64,000 bases of DNA from assembly GCF_019285735.1 (NCBI RefSeq), contig NZ_CP079107.1, positions 930,001 to 994,000 on the forward strand, in the 5' to 3' direction. The stretch is from Paeniglutamicibacter sp. Y32M11 (lineage in GTDB: Bacteria > Actinomycetota > Actinomycetes > Actinomycetales > Micrococcaceae). Position numbers and translations under genes: made by a program. Under the pieces are notes generated by a model. That model worked only from the letters and a program-made list of their open reading frames with translations, did no database searches and was not told the DNA's origin. Within the stretch, counting starts at the first letter, position 1; the number at the start of each line of letters is the position of its first letter. This document shows, in pieces, positions 57,350 through 64,000 of this stretch.

Positions 57350-57684
57350 ATCGTTCCGGGGCCGTCCCCACGCACAACGACTCGGGGTTGCAACCCGAGC
57401 GGACGATTATGGCGTGGGGCAGGACCACGATGTCTCTCTGCGTGGCCGGGCTGATCTTCTTACGCTGGTTACCGCACTACGGACTGTCCGTCCTGTTGAT
57501 GGTGGCCCTCTGCCTGTCCTTGGCGGGCGGCATCTATTTCACACAACGTAAACGCTATGCCCGTGCATCAGCGGGCGTGCGCGATGAACGTATTCACGCC
57601 GACGCGGTGGCGGTGACTTCCATGACCGCCGTGGTGTTTACTTTGGGCGTCGTCGGAATCATTGTGGTGCTCGGAAACCAGTAA
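57346..57684 (+). CDS. DUF202 membrane protein, second of pair
   Basis: A 112-residue protein with the same signature, GLQPERTIMAWGRTTMSLC, and three predicted helices. It is translationally coupled to the first DUF202 gene. Its last 117 bases, encoding the third helix, are overlapped by the 3' end of the peroxiredoxin gene on the opposite strand. It probably forms a complex with its neighbour. Confidence 0.85.
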   Translation: MNRSGAVPTHNDSGLQPERTIMAWGRTTMSLCVAGLIFLRWLPHYGLSVLLMVALCLSLAGGIYFTQRKRYARASAGVRDERIHADAVAVTSMTAVVFTLGVVGIIVVLGNQ

Positions 57685-58203
57685 ATTCCTCAGCTGCTCC
57701 AGGAGATGCCGTGGGTGCCCCGCTGCATCCGTGATGCCCAGCTGCACGTGGGTGATAATTCCTGCCGAAACCACGAGCGTACTGCGTACGTAGAGTCTCT
57801 CGGAATCGAATTCGAAGGTGGGAAGTCCCAAGGCCGATACCAAGGTGAATTCGGGATCCGAAAGGAGGGGATAACCCAGATGAAGACGCTCCGCGGCCTC
57901 CTGTTGGTACTCGCTGTGCTGGCTAGATAGGCCCAGAAGTGAGTATCCGATGGCGGCGAAGTCACTCGCCAAGTCGCGGAACTCGCAAGACTCTGCGGTG
58001 CATCCTTTGGCGCCGGGAACCATCGACCATTGGGGTGCTTCGGCGACATCTGGCCGTCCCGTTTTGGGGTAAATGAACAAAATGAAAGAACTGGCGGGGA
58101 ACTCTCTGGCCGTGAACCTCGTGCCGTCGGTGGAGCGGAATGCACCGTCGGGAAACGCCGTACCGATCATTTGGCGTGTTGCTAGGTCTAGATCGGAGTT
58201 CAT
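57568..58203 (-). CDS. Peroxiredoxin (AhpC/TSA, BCP-like) with His-rich C-terminal tail
   Basis: A 211-residue thioredoxin-fold peroxidase. GAKGCTAESCEFRDL has the peroxidatic Cys68 and a second Cys73, spaced as in bacterioferritin-comigratory (PrxQ) proteins, but the family's usual PGxxTPGCT reads PGAKGCT. The fold appears to end at HLLEQLRNLL. The remaining ~38 residues (SEHHNDSDDAQSKHHGGHGS and on) are read antisense to the DUF202 third helix and are rich in His. Either a stop was lost or the tail is a functional metal-binding addition. The start ATG 58203 has no strong ribosome site. Divergent from the SbnA-like operon. Confidence 0.85.
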   Translation of the reverse strand: MNSDLDLATRQMIGTAFPDGAFRSTDGTRFTAREFPASSFILFIYPKTGRPDVAEAPQWSMVPGAKGCTAESCEFRDLASDFAAIGYSLLGLSSQHSEYQQEAAERLHLGYPLLSDPEFTLVSALGLPTFEFDSERLYVRSTLVVSAGIITHVQLGITDAAGHPRHLLEQLRNLLVSEHHNDSDDAQSKHHGGHGSHRHRVGVNTFIAHAR

Positions 58204-58545: not shown

Positions 58546-59535
58546 ATGAGTTTTGGTACGTTGAGCCCGTTTGTGTCGCCCACAGTCCAGCTGACCCAAC
58601 TGTTTGATGCACCCGATATTGAGGTGTTCGCCAAGTTAGATTCCCTCCAACTCTCGGGCAGCACCAAGGAACGAACGGCCGCCAGCCTCATTGACGGACT
58701 CCTGGACTCGGGACGTCTGGCCGAAGGCGGAATGATCGTGGAGTCCACGTCGGGAAATCTTGGAATGGCTTTGGCACGACAGTGCGTCGTTCGGGGCATC
58801 AAATTTGTTGCCGTGGTTGACCAGAATGCCAACGCCTCGGCACTTGAAATCATGCGTGCCTTTGGCGCCGCCATCGATGTGGTCCCCACCCCGCCGGACG
58901 GAAACAAGTTGTCGGCCAGGAGGAAGCGGGTTGAGCAACTACTGGCCGAACACCCCGGCGCTGTCACGACGAACCAATACGGTTCCTTGGATAACCCCGC
59001 GGCACATTTCTCCTCGACGATGCCGGAGATCATTGAGGCGATGGACGGACGGCTGGACATGCTTTTTGTCGCCACCAGTACCACCGGGACACTGCTGGGA
59101 TGCCAAAACTACATCAGGCACCATCAGCTGAAAACGAAGATCGTTGCGGTAGATTCACTCGGCTCGGTGTTATTCGGCGGCGAGTCAGGAACCAGGTCTT
59201 TGCCGGGACTCGGTGCGGGAATCGTCCCGGAGCTGGCGCTGGCGGCAGAGCCCGACATCGTCTGGCGCATCGAGGAGCTTGAGATGGTTGCGGGGTGCAA
59301 ACTACTTGCGCAACGAGAGGGGATCCTTGCAGGGGCCTCCACCGGGGCAATCGTCGCGGCCATGAGCCGCCAACTGCCGTCCATACCCGCCGGATCTAGA
59401 ATCGCATTCCTCGTCCACGACTCCGGGGTTCCCTACCTGCATACGGTATACAACGACACGTGGGTGCAGGAAAACCTCGCCGGAAAAACCACGGTTAAGG
59501 CGGGCTTCGGAACCACAAGCGCAGGGGTGTTGTGA
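58546..59535 (+). CDS. SbnA-like PLP synthase (cysteine synthase family)
   Basis: A 329-residue fold-type II PLP enzyme. PLP Lys41 lies in SGSTKERTAASL, the phosphate/substrate loop is ESTSGNLGMALA (66-77), and GASTGAIVAA closes the cofactor site. The start GTLSPFVSPTVQL and the ESTSGN loop are closer to SbnA, which joins O-phosphoserine and glutamate to N-(2-amino-2-carboxyethyl)-glutamate, than to CysK. ATG 58546 has GAGGA 6 bases upstream. The stop overlaps the next start (GTGA). It is the first gene of a three-gene operon. Other beta-replacement chemistry on serine derivatives is possible. Confidence 0.85.
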   Translation: MSFGTLSPFVSPTVQLTQLFDAPDIEVFAKLDSLQLSGSTKERTAASLIDGLLDSGRLAEGGMIVESTSGNLGMALARQCVVRGIKFVAVVDQNANASALEIMRAFGAAIDVVPTPPDGNKLSARRKRVEQLLAEHPGAVTTNQYGSLDNPAAHFSSTMPEIIEAMDGRLDMLFVATSTTGTLLGCQNYIRHHQLKTKIVAVDSLGSVLFGGESGTRSLPGLGAGIVPELALAAEPDIVWRIEELEMVAGCKLLAQREGILAGASTGAIVAAMSRQLPSIPAGSRIAFLVHDSGVPYLHTVYNDTWVQENLAGKTTVKAGFGTTSAGVL

Positions 59536-61151
59536 CTCGGATTGCCATGATCGGCGGCGGACCCAAGACGCTGTTCGCCCTGCTCGAACTCCATGATGTG
59601 CTGTCCCCGGAACGGGCCGGAACACTGCACGTTGACGTGTACGATCCGCATCCGCCCGGTGCCGGACGAGTTTGGCAAAGTGGACAGCCCGAGGTCCTGC
59701 GGCTCAATGTCGCCTCACGGATCGTCGACGCCAGCTCAAGGCTGAACGATCAGAATTTCGGTACATGGGCAGCATGCAACGCCCCGCAGTACATGAACGA
59801 CACATATCCGCCGCGTGCAGTGGTGGGCCGATACCTGAGCGAACAATTCCGCACTCTCTCGGAACAGGGGAACATGGAGTTAAATCACGTCCCCCTCGTG
59901 GTGCTTGCCGTGGTCCGGGATGTAGCGGGCTGGCAGGTGCACACCGCGGAAGGCGCGGAGTTCTACGATGAAGTGGTACTGGCCACGGGTCACGGTTTGT
60001 CCGACGAGCCGAGCGCGGAGGAGATTCCCACGGCTCAAAATGCAACGCCGCTCATCGGCGACTACGGATCGCTCACCGAGGCGCGGATTCCGCCAGGCGG
60101 TCGCGTTCGCCTCCGGGGTGCAGCCCTGACCGCTTATGACGTTGCCCTGCTACTTACCGAAGGCCGTGGTGGTCGCTGGGAAACGGACACCACGGATGGA
60201 ACCGGCTCCCTGCGCTATCTAGCCAGTGGGCGAGAGCCGTCCAGAATCATCATGACCTCGCGCACGGGGTTGCCCATGGATCCTAAACCCGAGTCGATTC
60301 CTCCGGAAATCGTTGAACTCATCCGGTCGCGTGCTCAACAACTTCGCCGATGGGGGAGTGATCTGGCTACTGCCACCGAGACCACTACCCACAAGATGGA
60401 CGGGTTGTGGCGGATCCTGCTTGACGCAGCCGCGGACTGCGCCGCAATGGCTGGGCTGAGGACCTCAAAACTTCAGCTGTGGCGCACCGCGCTGACCGGT
60501 CGATCGGCGGAGATGAGGACCGGTGACGGCTTGGACGGGTTCTGGCGGCGTAGTCTCGCGGTCAATGGGGGAGCAGCGGAGCCCACCACACGTTGGGTGT
60601 GGGCTCGAGTGTGGTCGGGACTCTACGCTCATCTCGTTGTGGCCGTCGACAGGGTTCGGTGGGAGCCGCGGCAGCGCAAACTCTTTGATCGGATCGCACG
60701 GAATTTCGAGCGGATGGCCTTCGGGCCCCCGGAGCGCACGGTGCAGCGGCTGGTGGCACTCTTTGAGGCTGGACTGTTGGCACAGGAGAGAACCGCGGTG
60801 GACGTAGATCATCACGCAGAAATAGTTGTTGATGCTCTGACTCCGACGCCAGGGATTCTGCCGAAGCCCGGCGATGCGGCGAAAGCATCACTGTATGCAG
60901 ACCTGCTCGAGGCGGGAGAAATTTCGGTCCGCAGCGGAGAACGCGGACTGCTGACCGACCTCGACGGGACCTGTTTAGATACTCGGGGGCAGCGTAACGA
61001 ATCCTTGACCGCTCTTGGCCGGCCCACCGAAGGACCCACCCTGGGCCACGACACCCTGAACAGATCCTTACATGAGGAGCCCCGACGTTGGGCCCGAAGA
61101 ATTGCCAGCCAGCTACCGCTGCCCGCCACCTCACTAAGCGAGTGCCAATGA
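59532..61151 (+). CDS. FAD/NAD(P)-binding protein (NAD_binding_9-like)
   Basis: A 539-residue protein with the N-terminal dinucleotide motif RIAMIGGGPKTLFALLEL and the VYDPHPPGAGRVW, LRLNVAS continuation typical of the FAD/NAD(P)-binding group of PF13454. A second glycine-rich strand, RVRLRGAALTAYDVALLL, lies near residue 190. The C-terminal ~200 residues are Arg/Trp-rich and unfamiliar. The GTG start overlaps the synthase stop, and the stop overlaps the decarboxylase start (ATGA). Position suggests it oxidises or reduces the synthase product, taking the place that SbnB has in staphyloferrin B assembly; this is inference. Confidence 0.8.
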   Translation: MTRIAMIGGGPKTLFALLELHDVLSPERAGTLHVDVYDPHPPGAGRVWQSGQPEVLRLNVASRIVDASSRLNDQNFGTWAACNAPQYMNDTYPPRAVVGRYLSEQFRTLSEQGNMELNHVPLVVLAVVRDVAGWQVHTAEGAEFYDEVVLATGHGLSDEPSAEEIPTAQNATPLIGDYGSLTEARIPPGGRVRLRGAALTAYDVALLLTEGRGGRWETDTTDGTGSLRYLASGREPSRIIMTSRTGLPMDPKPESIPPEIVELIRSRAQQLRRWGSDLATATETTTHKMDGLWRILLDAAADCAAMAGLRTSKLQLWRTALTGRSAEMRTGDGLDGFWRRSLAVNGGAAEPTTRWVWARVWSGLYAHLVVAVDRVRWEPRQRKLFDRIARNFERMAFGPPERTVQRLVALFEAGLLAQERTAVDVDHHAEIVVDALTPTPGILPKPGDAAKASLYADLLEAGEISVRSGERGLLTDLDGTCLDTRGQRNESLTALGRPTEGPTLGHDTLNRSLHEEPRRWARRIASQLPLPATSLSECQ

Positions 61152-62551
61152 AAACGATGATGCAGGGGATAGCGCCCCTTACCGCCCGGCTCGAACCGTG
61201 GATGGAGTCGGTGATGGCCGATACGCAGCTCTGCGCGGAACTGCTTGAGCGCCACGGATCACCCCTCAATTTGCACAACTTTTCCGCCATGGACCGCAAC
61301 GTTGCGGAGTTACGCGCAGCGGCGGCGAATCACGACATTACGTTCCAGATCTATCTGGCCCGGAAGGCGAACAAGACGCTCGGTGCAGTAGAACAGGCGG
61401 CGGCCAGTGACTGTGGGATCGATGTGGCGAGCCTCAACGAGCTACGCCAAGTCTTGGACGCGGGCGTGCCGGGCGAGAAAATCGTTCTCACCGCGGCCGT
61501 GAAATCAACGGCGCTGCTTCGCCTGGCGGTCACCAATGACGTGGTCATCAGCCTGGATAACTACGACGAGGCTACCGAACTTCTGGGGCTAGAACCCATT
61601 GCCGGTAAACCACTGCGCGTGGCCCTGCGACTTGCGTCGGATGATCCAGGAATCCCGCCCACCCGCTTTGGCCTCAAAGCCGGGCACTGGCTCAATGATC
61701 TGAAAACGTTGGATGCTCACCAGCGCCTGAAGATCGAAGGCATCCATTTCCATCTCAATGGTTATGACCATACTCAGCGCGCAATTCTTATCGTGGAGGC
61801 ACTGAGCTTCATCGAGCGGCTGCGGATGTTGGGCCACCGGCCGAGCTTCATTGACATGGGTGGTGGCATCCCGATGTCCTACCTCGAAAGTGCGGCGCAG
61901 TGGGATCAATTCTGGTCGGATCTTTCCGCCCTTCCGGCAGGGAATGAGGAACTGACCTGGAAATCCGACCGATTGGGTGCCCACGGTCCGGTGCCAAGCG
62001 CCGCCGTATACCCATATCACCAGTCACTGGTTCGCGGGCCATGGTTGGATCGTCTATTGCGCTCTCGACCCGATGGTCAGCCGTTATCCATCGCGGATCG
62101 GTTGCGCAGCCAGAACATCGAATTGCGGTGTGAACCGGGGCGGTCTTTGCTTGATGGCTGTGGCATCACGCTCGCCAGCGTCGCCTTCAGCAAAAGCCGC
62201 AGTGACGGGGTGCCGTTGGTTGGCTTGCATATGAATCGAACCCAATGTCGTTCCACCTCGGCAGATTTCCTGCTGGACCCCATTCTGCTGCAGGCCGCCG
62301 AGCCAGCGCGGGAACGTTCACCTCTCAGCGGCTTTTTGGTGGGCGCCTATTGCATCGAGGAGGAGCTGCTGTTGCGCAGGCGATTCAATTTTCCCCACGG
62401 TGTTGCGCCGCGGGACATCGTGGTCTTTCCCAACACGGCCGGCTATTTGATGCACATCGTGGAGAGCGCGTCGCACCAGTTGCCGCTCGCCGCCAACCTT
62501 CGTTGGGATGGCCAGGACTGGGTACCCGATGCCATTGATGAGCTCGTGTGA
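61148..62551 (+). CDS. PLP-dependent decarboxylase, Y4yA/SbnH-like
   Basis: A 467-residue fold-type III (alanine racemase-barrel) decarboxylase. The PLP lysine is K73 in YLARKANKTLGAV, GIHFHLNGYD has the pyridine-stacking His, IDMGGGIP and CEPGRSLLDGCG bind phosphate, and GAYCIEEELLLRRR carries the second-subunit Cys region of the diaminopimelate/ornithine decarboxylase group. ATG 61148 was chosen because it overlaps the preceding stop (ATGA). Relatives are SbnH and, as I recall, rhizobial Y4yA. A substrate carrying a D- or L-amino carboxylate made by the two upstream enzymes is expected. Confidence 0.85.
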   Translation: MKTMMQGIAPLTARLEPWMESVMADTQLCAELLERHGSPLNLHNFSAMDRNVAELRAAAANHDITFQIYLARKANKTLGAVEQAAASDCGIDVASLNELRQVLDAGVPGEKIVLTAAVKSTALLRLAVTNDVVISLDNYDEATELLGLEPIAGKPLRVALRLASDDPGIPPTRFGLKAGHWLNDLKTLDAHQRLKIEGIHFHLNGYDHTQRAILIVEALSFIERLRMLGHRPSFIDMGGGIPMSYLESAAQWDQFWSDLSALPAGNEELTWKSDRLGAHGPVPSAAVYPYHQSLVRGPWLDRLLRSRPDGQPLSIADRLRSQNIELRCEPGRSLLDGCGITLASVAFSKSRSDGVPLVGLHMNRTQCRSTSADFLLDPILLQAAEPARERSPLSGFLVGAYCIEEELLLRRRFNFPHGVAPRDIVVFPNTAGYLMHIVESASHQLPLAANLRWDGQDWVPDAIDELV

Positions 62552-62734
62552 CATCGCGGCTGGTGCCCGCAGCAGATTCGGTTGCGCCGGAAGTGTTCTC
62601 TAGGCCTTGACTCGGAGAGTGGTCGAAGGGAGGCTCGATACAGACACTGAGCCACTTTGTGCCCTGGCACCGATATCGGCCAGCTCGTGGCGCAGCAGAT
62701 CTTCATCCGTGCACCACGATTCGAGGAGAGCACC

Positions 62735-63280
62735 ATGAATCACCCATTTAACGAGCTGCTCACGAGACAGCTCGGCAACGAATTTGCCGCTTCCCAGCAG
62801 TACATCGCCATCGCCAGTTGGTTTGATGGACAGGATCTGCCGCGGCTGGCCAAACACTTTTACCGGCAGTCGTTGGAGGAGCGGAATCACGCCATGATGA
62901 TGCTCCAATACATGCTGGACCGGGGCATTAAAGTGGAGATTCCAGGCATTGAACCGGTGCGCAACGACTTCGGATCGGCCGAGGAACCGTTGGTGCTAGC
63001 GCTGGCCCAAGAGGTTGAGGTGACTGATCAGATCAAGGCGCTGTTCGCTGCAGCCCGGGCCGAGAATGACCCGCTGGGTGAACAATTCATGCTCTGGTTC
63101 CTCAAGGAGCAGGTCGAAGAGGTCGCCTCGATGTCCACGCTGCTGAATGTCGCCCGCCGCGCCACAAACGTCTTTGACGTTGAGACGTTCCTGGCCCGCG
63201 AGCGTGTGGGTGATGGAGGCCGGTCCCGCTCTCCGGTGGAGGACTCCGGTTCGCCGGCACCAGCCGGGGGAGCGCTCTAA
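62735..63280 (+). CDS. Ferritin
   Basis: A 181-residue four-helix bundle ferritin that oxidises and stores iron in a 24-mer shell. Ferroxidase ligands: Glu in GNEFAASQQYIAIASW, Glu and His in SLEERNHAMMML, and Glu/Gln in AQEVEVTDQIKAL and KEQVEEVASM. The ~25-residue C-terminal tail is Ser/Pro/Gly-rich. GAGGAGAG ends 4 bases before ATG 62735, a strong ribosome site. The 183-base gap suggests its own promoter, separate from the upstream operon. No haem-ligand Met typical of bacterioferritin was seen. Confidence 0.93.
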   Translation: MNHPFNELLTRQLGNEFAASQQYIAIASWFDGQDLPRLAKHFYRQSLEERNHAMMMLQYMLDRGIKVEIPGIEPVRNDFGSAEEPLVLALAQEVEVTDQIKALFAAARAENDPLGEQFMLWFLKEQVEEVASMSTLLNVARRATNVFDVETFLARERVGDGGRSRSPVEDSGSPAPAGGAL

Positions 63281-63310
63281 CCCGGGAACTTCGGAAAGCG
63301 CTCAGATAGC

Positions 63311-63347
63311 GGTGGTTGTTCCGTACACGGTGTGTGGAACAACCACC
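63311..63347. terminator. Bidirectional terminator between ferritin and cupin genes
   Basis: GGTGGTTGTTCC (63311-63322) pairs exactly with GGAACAACCACC (63336-63347). The genes converge here. Confidence 0.82.
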
Positions 63348-63354
63348 GGAGAAC

Positions 63355-63678
63355 TTATGTGCGGCTGATGATATCGACGGATATTTCCACGGCAGGGACC
63401 GTCCCCTGGTTTTCTAGCCAATGCGTGGTGGTGCTGTCTTCCGGCCAACCCACACCGGGCCCATAGTGGGTGGCAACTCCATCTCGGTGATCGGTGATCG
63501 TGCCCTGCAGGATATTCACCACTCCGGGTCTGCCTTGATGGTCATGCAGTGGACCGAAGACGCTTCCGGGGGCCATGGTGATTCTGCGCATCCGAAGTTC
63601 TCTTCCGGCCATCCCCGGAATTTCCGGCCCTAAATCAACACTTGTTAAGAGCTCGACCGTGACTCTCGTGTTCACCAT
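63355..63678 (-). CDS. Cupin-domain protein
   Basis: A small single-cupin protein. The double-stranded beta-helix core has GPLHDHQGRPGVVNILQG (metal His motif 1) and WPEDSTTTHWLENQGTVPAVEI (motif 2). From ATG 63678 it is 107 residues; the frame is open for another 70 codons upstream (to 63888), and that part could be genuine, since no ribosome site supports 63678. Probably cytosolic; the substrate is unknown. It converges with the ferritin gene. Confidence 0.75.
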   Translation of the reverse strand: MVNTRVTVELLTSVDLGPEIPGMAGRELRMRRITMAPGSVFGPLHDHQGRPGVVNILQGTITDHRDGVATHYGPGVGWPEDSTTTHWLENQGTVPAVEISVDIISRT

Positions 63679-64000
63679 GATCTGTGAGCATCGTCGTTGC
63701 CTTTCCGCGCTTCGGATACTCACATGGTTGACTTCAGGTTTGGAAGAGTCAAGCACCCATGAGGCGGACCCCGGCAGAACTAGGAAACCGTTCAGAGCAG
63801 CACCGCGCCCCGGCGGAATCGGTCTATTGGCCTCAGACATCCGCGGAGACCATTGATCGTGGGGTGCTGACGAAAGTAGTGACAGCACAATCGAGGGGGC
63901 CGCATGGTTCGTTTCACTGACGGAACGCCCCTACGAATGCCCGCCCAGTAGCGGAGAATAAGCCGTTTAGCTCGACCAGAGGGCTATCAAAGCGCCAAGC

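What the first reader, a model, noticed from the sequence alone, without database searches (positions are those of the whole stretch)
58546..62551. Three-gene SbnA-like / FAD-NAD(P) / Y4yA-like operon without SbnB or siderophore synthetase
Seen: three genes with 4-base overlaps, so one translated unit. Known: SbnA with SbnB makes 2,3-diaminopropionate and SbnH decarboxylates an intermediate in staphyloferrin B synthesis. From memory, Y4yA and a cysteine-synthase-like Y4xP lie near an IucA/IucC-type gene in Rhizobium NGR234. Here the ornithine-cyclodeaminase partner is replaced by a 539-residue FAD/NAD(P) protein, and no IucA/IucC ligase, NRPS or exporter is within the window. Inference: a compact pathway making a decarboxylated diaminopropionate-type metabolite (diamine or opine-like), possibly a free metallophore or signal.
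Basis: partly seen in the sequence, partly recalled or inferred. Interest (0 to 1): 0.8.

Follow-up and report, generated by a model that had tools for sequence, protein, structure and literature searches.

The report
Three-gene diamine N-oxidation cassette
Three neighbouring genes encode a serine-phosphate-using enzyme, a probable nitrogen-oxidising flavoenzyme and a decarboxylase; they stay together in scattered bacteria of two phyla and probably make a small oxidised diamine that has not been identified.

The parts
58546..59535 (+). Gene A: SbnA-type PLP beta-replacement enzyme (alternative start 58540)
   Evidence: TIGR03945 337 bits vs CysK 167; OPS-selectivity residues R127/Y147/S180, numbered from 58540; with SbnA in the tree, 93/94
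59532..61151 (+). Gene B: FzmM-like class-B flavin N-hydroxylase homologue with a changed substrate pocket
61148..62551 (+). Gene C: fold-type III PLP decarboxylase, Y4yA-like but a separate clade
   Evidence: PF02784; fold match to D-Orn/D-Lys and diaminopimelate decarboxylases, SbnH at rank 50; PLP Lys73, His202, Glu329/Gly331/Arg332 and Cys402 conserved

Best explanation
A self-contained, horizontally spread cassette of three sequential enzymes. Step 1 (well supported as a reaction class, inferred from homology): A eliminates phosphate from O-phospho-L-serine and adds an amino-acid nitrogen to the aminoacrylate, as SbnA does with glutamate, giving N-(2-amino-2-carboxyethyl)-glutamate (ACEGA) or a close analogue. 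Step 2 (inferred): B uses NADPH, FAD and O2 to oxygenate a nitrogen of that intermediate, in the place where SbnB or a cyclodeaminase-like enzyme sits in other pathways. A second oxidation to a nitrone followed by hydrolysis would release 2-oxoglutarate and N-hydroxy-diaminopropionate; a single hydroxylation would leave an N-hydroxy conjugate. Step 3 (inferred): C removes the serine-derived carboxylate, leaving an N-oxygenated ethylenediamine-type molecule. B-C fusions suggest the last two steps are coupled. Confidence: enzyme classes about 0.85; B as an N-oxygenase acting on a pathway intermediate about 0.5; the exact product about 0.15.
For: A: SbnA clade and OPS triad; in 13 non-trio synthases of three other operon types the Ser of the triad is Gly in 13 of 13. 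B: FzmM is the best sequence and fold match, over the whole length. FzmM's Asn62 is kept in 51 of 51 rows that reach it, Trp51 is W in 37 and Y in 14, and Arg577 is R in 51 of 52. C: catalytic residues kept; decarboxylase fold. Unit: conserved and contiguous in two phyla; B-C fused in 5 genomes; trio A and trio C each form one clade, 96/95 and 100/99. Position: OCD-like gene beside C in 6 non-trio loci, with gene order A-OCD-C in two of them.
Confidence: 0.5

Rival explanations
1. B is a plain functional substitute for SbnB: it dehydrogenates ACEGA to diaminopropionate and 2-oxoglutarate without forming an N-O bond, and C then makes ethylenediamine.
For: Same position as the cyclodeaminase-like gene in other Y4yA-type operons; no SbnB over its cut-off in any trio genome of the genus: the single one over it, of 15 genomes, is G004, which lacks the trio.
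Against: B has the whole three-domain FzmM architecture with the catalytic Asn conserved, which a dehydrogenase would not be expected to need.
Confidence: 0.2
2. The trio supplies a building block (diaminopropionate or ethylenediamine) to an NRPS-independent siderophore made elsewhere in the genome.
For: Sbn and rhizobial Y4yA operons are siderophore operons; an IucA/IucC gene exists at 2.96 Mb in this genome; a ferritin gene lies just downstream.
Against: In the genus (15 genomes) the two do not co-vary: trio without IucA/C in G001 and G009 (and G011, 88% complete); IucA/C without trio in G004, G012 and G013. No IdeR or Zur consensus above shuffled background in 32 upstream regions. The ferritin was found beside the trio only here and in the near twin.
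Confidence: 0.12
3. B is a true aspartate N-hydroxylase giving nitrosuccinate or nitrite, which feeds A and C or an N-N bond.
For: Full-length homology and fold.
Against: The helix string RxxRNxxR (Arg409 to Arg416, with the aspartate-holding Asn413 and Arg416) is in 4 of 4 Streptomyces FzmM-type proteins; in B a match elsewhere occurs in 3 of 24 rows. Arg13 is mostly Lys (43 of 51) and Arg266 is Lys in 51 of 51. No nitrosuccinate-lyase gene was seen with the trio, whereas the four FzmM-type genes fetched each have a lyase-superfamily gene next door.
Confidence: 0.08
4. A catabolic or detoxifying operon that runs these reactions on an environmental amine.
For: Patchy (48 of 395 family genomes) and without an exporter common to the loci.
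Against: A is a synthase type with the biosynthetic OPS triad; no regulator is common to the loci.
Confidence: 0.05

Closest known systems
SbnA/SbnB of staphyloferrin B synthesis
   Same: A is SbnA-type, with Arg/Tyr/Ser for O-phosphoserine
   Different: No SbnB; a flavin N-hydroxylase homologue takes its place; no siderophore ligase in the operon
L-aspartate N-hydroxylase (FzmM/CreE) of the aspartate-nitrosuccinate pathway
   Same: Whole-length fold, FAD/NADPH domains, catalytic Asn, C-terminal Arg
   Different: Helix with Asn413/Arg416 not recognisable; no nitrosuccinate lyase beside it; ~25% identity
Y4yA-type decarboxylase operons of rhizobia (Y4yA, CBS-like synthase, opine dehydrogenase, IucA/IucC)
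   Same: Synthase plus a Y4yA-type decarboxylase
   Different: Separate clade; synthase not SbnA-type (RSG instead of RYS); has ligase, transporter and opine dehydrogenase
OCD-like + Y4yA-like + cysteine-synthase-like + MATE operons (e.g. M. avium pMAH135)
   Same: Synthase and decarboxylase together, with the OCD-like gene where B stands in two of six loci
   Different: OCD-like protein instead of B; synthase has Gly at the Ser of the triad in 6 of 6; MATE gene alongside
SbnH, citryl-diaminopropionate decarboxylase
   Same: Same fold-type III decarboxylase fold; acts on a diaminopropionate carboxylate
   Different: Only rank 50 among the fold matches; substrate of C unknown

Membership tests
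SbnA (TIGR03945) | Score above the curated cut-off (349.95 bits) | tested here: not met
   Window copy 337.1. Of 9 other trio A proteins scanned, 2 pass: L156 361.4 and L170 358.1; the other 7 score 294-348
SbnA (TIGR03945) | Arg132/Tyr152/Ser185 for selective O-phosphoserine binding | tested here: met
   R127/Y147/S180 in 51 of 51 trio A rows; 13 non-trio synthases read RHG, RYG, VYG, PYG or RSG; role from PMC12414870 passages
SbnA (TIGR03945) | Groups with SbnA rather than CysK/CBS | tested here: inconclusive
   26 rows on one side of a branch, 93/94, not starred; one SbnA reference on a long branch
SbnA/SbnB diaminopropionate pathway | SbnB partner present beside SbnA | tested here: not met
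   Absent from the operon; none over the SbnB cut-off in trio genomes of the genus, though 9 of 10 have weaker cyclodeaminase-family matches
L-aspartate N-hydroxylase (FzmM) | Three-domain FAD/NADP/helical fold | tested here: met
L-aspartate N-hydroxylase (FzmM) | Catalytic Asn62 and stacking Trp51 | tested here: met
   Asn in 51 of 51; Trp in 37, Tyr in 14; roles from PMC10404684 sections 7 and 8
L-aspartate N-hydroxylase (FzmM) | Arg/Asn cluster helix Arg409/Arg412/Asn413/Arg416 | tested here: not met
   String in 4 of 4 FzmM-type rows; in B only a match at another place, 3 of 24 rows. Alignment of this helix is weak; Arg276 was not traced
L-aspartate N-hydroxylase (FzmM) | Neighbouring nitrosuccinate lyase | tested here: not met
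   None among the scanned neighbours; no family other than the trio is common to the loci
Y4yA family decarboxylase | Fold-III decarboxylase active site | tested here: met
   Lys73 and His202 in 51 of 51 rows that reach them; Glu329, Gly331, Arg332 and Cys402 in 52 of 52; the public annotation names the Sulfitobacter C 'Y4yA family'
Y4yA family decarboxylase | Clusters with rhizobial Y4yA | tested here: not met
   Trio C is one clade, 100/99, apart from three rhizobial rows
NRPS-independent siderophore pathway | IucA/IucC ligase in the cluster | tested here: not met
   The genome's only match is about 2 Mb away
NRPS-independent siderophore pathway | Metal-responsive (IdeR/Zur) operator | tested here: inconclusive
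   Best matches no closer than in shuffled sequence in 32 upstream regions; consensus strings recalled, so divergent boxes could be missed
any of the above | Enzyme activity | not testable with these tools
   Needs purified proteins

The most novel reading that the evidence does not exclude
A previously undescribed minimal pathway: O-phosphoserine plus an amino acid is converted by SbnA, an FzmM-type N-oxygenase and a Y4yA-like decarboxylase into an N-oxygenated ethylenediamine (hydroxylamine, nitroso or nitro diamine, or an N-N bond precursor) that serves as a diffusible signal or antimetabolite, carried as a mobile three-gene cassette across two phyla and at least twice condensed into a B-C fusion.
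Probability: 0.3. Interest if true: 0.8.

Novelty: new variant of a known kind. Interest (0 to 1): 0.6.

Why it matters
If right, it joins two biosynthetic chemistries that appear apart in what was read here, O-phosphoserine-based diaminopropionate synthesis and FzmM-type N-oxygenation, in a three-gene unit without the ligases or assembly-line genes that mark siderophore or peptide clusters. It would give a first guess at substrate class for one branch of the NAD_binding_9 proteins, and a compact source of N-O bonded diamines. The trio is small enough to test fully in vitro.

Tried and rejected
Considered and rejected: (1) CysK/CBS identity of A: A sits with SbnA and lacks the residue patterns of the rhizobial, OCD-type and C-A-type synthases. 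(2) Rhizobactin-like or NIS siderophore operon: no ligase, separate clades, no co-variation. (3) Iron or zinc regulation: IdeR, Zur and CsoR-like consensus scans no better than shuffled; consensus strings were recalled. (4) True aspartate N-hydroxylase: substrate helix not recognisable. (5) Promoter/terminator scan: nothing above background. (6) Shared neighbours: among 50 loci, by coordinates, every family seen in more than five genera was the trio or a frame overlapping it. The commonest other family across genera is an ABC-transporter ATPase, a broad family, in 10 loci; nine further shared families were scanned (opp-type ABC parts, MFS, LacI, dehydrogenases and others), and one search lists each of them in 6 loci or fewer. 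(7) Literature: searches showed nothing on this combination in their listings; 6, 96 and 97 are the searches behind the novelty statement (97 returned 252 papers, 20 listed, two read by passage).

Weaknesses: the fold comparisons of B rest on one predicted model (pLDDT 89). Equivalences between B and FzmM residues come from sequence alignment, not superposed coordinates; Arg276 was not traced. In a first B tree with a very long row the trio was not one clade; without that row it was, 85/89. L029 (Tsukamurella) has His at the Arg577 place. The A, B and C trees use 25, 24 and 24 trio rows out of the larger set. One search leaves out 14 genome-contig loci (L044-L057, treated as copies of G-handle loci), the partial L030 and the four non-trio loci L031-L034.
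Full report
What is there. Three forward genes lie head to tail at the right end of the window: A 58546-59535, B 59532-61151, C 61148-62551, with 4-base overlaps at both junctions. The window lies in a 4.17 Mb genome of the genus that holds Paeniglutamicibacter.

Is it a unit? Yes. In the genus scan B matched at 54% identity or more in 10 of 15 genomes. In 9 of these A, B and C are contiguous, and in G011 the contig ends inside B. In the family scan, C was found in 48 of 395 genomes and 9 of 32 genera. I examined 47 of these 48 (the 10 in the genus plus 37 fetched; G253 was not fetched): 45 have all three genes side by side, counting G042 whose C runs into a contig end, and G011 and G098 are cut by contig ends. 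In the phylum sample B was found at E 1e-40 in 4 of 396 genomes, this one and three of a family outside this class (code f16), and those three carry A-B-C, one of them with C broken by a frame change. The trio also lies on a Tsukamurella plasmid and, with the same 4-base overlaps, on two Sulfitobacter plasmids of the Alphaproteobacteria. Over 51 loci given to the A-B junction is a 4-base overlap in 41 of 50 loci that show both genes; of 49 B-C junctions 30 are 4-base overlaps, 14 other spacings and 5 fusions. The fusions (1164 and 1172 aa in G129 and G250; 896-902 aa in G071, G224 and G265) fall in two genera; in one of them unfused relatives sit beside a fused one in the C tree, so at least two fusions are the simplest reading.

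Gene A. NCBIfam's SbnA model is the best hit at 337.1 bits, under its 349.95 cut-off, against 167 for CysK. Of nine other trio A proteins scanned, two pass the cut-off (L156 361.4, L170 358.1) and the other seven score 294-348. A rhizobial synthase scores 242 (and 243.5 with the CBS model) and an M. avium one 236, still its best model. In PMC12414870 (passages) Arg132, Tyr152 and Ser185 are named as the residues for selective O-phosphoserine binding. The equivalents R127, Y147 and S180 are present in 51 of 51 trio rows; 13 non-trio synthases read RHG (4), RYG (2), VYG (2), PYG (2) and RSG (3). In a careful tree the 25 trio rows are one side of a branch (96/95) and join the single SbnA reference (93/94, not starred).

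Gene C. It is a fold-type III PLP decarboxylase by Pfam, PDB profile search and fold search with its own model (pLDDT 88), where SbnH appears at rank 50. Lys73, His202, Glu329, Gly331, Arg332 and Cys402 are kept. In the tree the 24 trio rows form one clade (100/99), separate from six rows of OCD-type operons, five of C-A-type loci and three rhizobial rows.

Comparison of arrangements. In the phylum sample C-like genes occur in 12 of 396 genomes. Four are trio genomes. Five (G416, G443, G543, G628, G745) carry an OCD-like gene directly before C with a synthase and a MATE gene; G443 and G628 have further C loci without it, and in G521, G639 and G727 neither OCD nor B was seen (G639's stretch is cut). 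M. avium pMAH135 is of the OCD type, its OCD-like protein scoring 92.8 bits against SbnB's 326.9 cut-off. In M. avium and G543 the order is synthase, OCD, C, so B stands in the OCD slot. Three rhizobial plasmids have ParB-N/SerK-like, Y4yA, CBS-like synthase, opine dehydrogenase and IucA/IucC. None of the 11 non-trio C loci (L193-L203) showed B. In the genus, a protein over the SbnB cut-off is found only in G004, which lacks the trio; weaker cyclodeaminase-family matches occur in 9 of the 10 genomes with B, so an SbnB-like step elsewhere is not excluded.

Mechanism. The best reading is A then B then C as set out in the best explanation: an O-phosphoserine-derived conjugate, nitrogen oxygenation in place of SbnB's oxidation, and decarboxylation. 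The steps are inferred from families, residue conservation, position and fusion; none is measured. The review passages read (PMC11705231; PMC7347517) describe N-hydroxylation of diaminopropionate as a proposed step towards alanosine, by another enzyme type and (in the second) on a carrier protein, so such a compound is chemically plausible, but the enzymes here differ.

Against a metallophore. IucA/IucC and the trio do not co-vary in the genus. IdeR and Zur consensus strings, recalled, fit the 32 upstream regions no better than shuffled ones. No transporter family is common to the loci: an ABC ATPase family reaches 10 of 50, others fewer. The ferritin gene downstream of the window's C appears in the near twin P. 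terrestris and in none of the other loci searched.

Novelty. No paper found in the held library joined these parts: Y4yA or Y4xP gave 4 papers, judged from titles and abstract starts only; SbnA with nitrosuccinate gave none; and one search gave 252, of which 20 were listed and two read by passage without mention of it. Subscription papers are mostly missing from that library, so this is not proof of absence in print. Every enzyme belongs to a known superfamily; the combination and B's branch appear new, hence 'new variant of a known kind'.

Noticed in passing
window 60200-63700 vs L044: Identity to the near twin P. terrestris falls from about 99-100% to mostly 92-97% (two 200-base steps at 84 and 88%) from the middle of gene B onwards, as if a recombination boundary lies inside B.
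   Followed up: partly
L032, L033, L034: Rhizobial plasmids carry ParB-N/SerK-like, Y4yA, CBS-like synthase, opine dehydrogenase, IucA/IucC and transport genes; from memory of rhizobactin's structure this looks like a candidate opine-type siderophore operon.
   Followed up: no
L031, L193-L195, L198, L203: An OCD-like + Y4yA-like + synthase + MATE operon in M. avium pMAH135 and five other actinobacterial loci, near copper genes on pMAH135; synthase gene before OCD in two loci and after C in four.
   Followed up: partly
L205 (G000:C1:3100283): A 674-aa NAD_binding_9 protein elsewhere in this genome joins the Streptomyces aspartate N-hydroxylases in the B tree (94/84, long branch) but lacks the RxxRNxxR string.
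   Followed up: partly
window 57571-58203 (-): A peroxiredoxin-like gene lies upstream of and divergent from the trio in this window and in six of eight other loci of the genus (L035-L042); not found near the trio in the other loci.
   Followed up: partly
L155 (G501): Gene C is split over two frames in this draft genome; may be an assembly error or a broken gene.
   Followed up: no
L226 10951-14073 (just outside the window): A large Orn/Lys/Arg decarboxylase (PF01276) gene lies a few kb downstream of the window end, after TerC and universal-stress genes.
   Followed up: no
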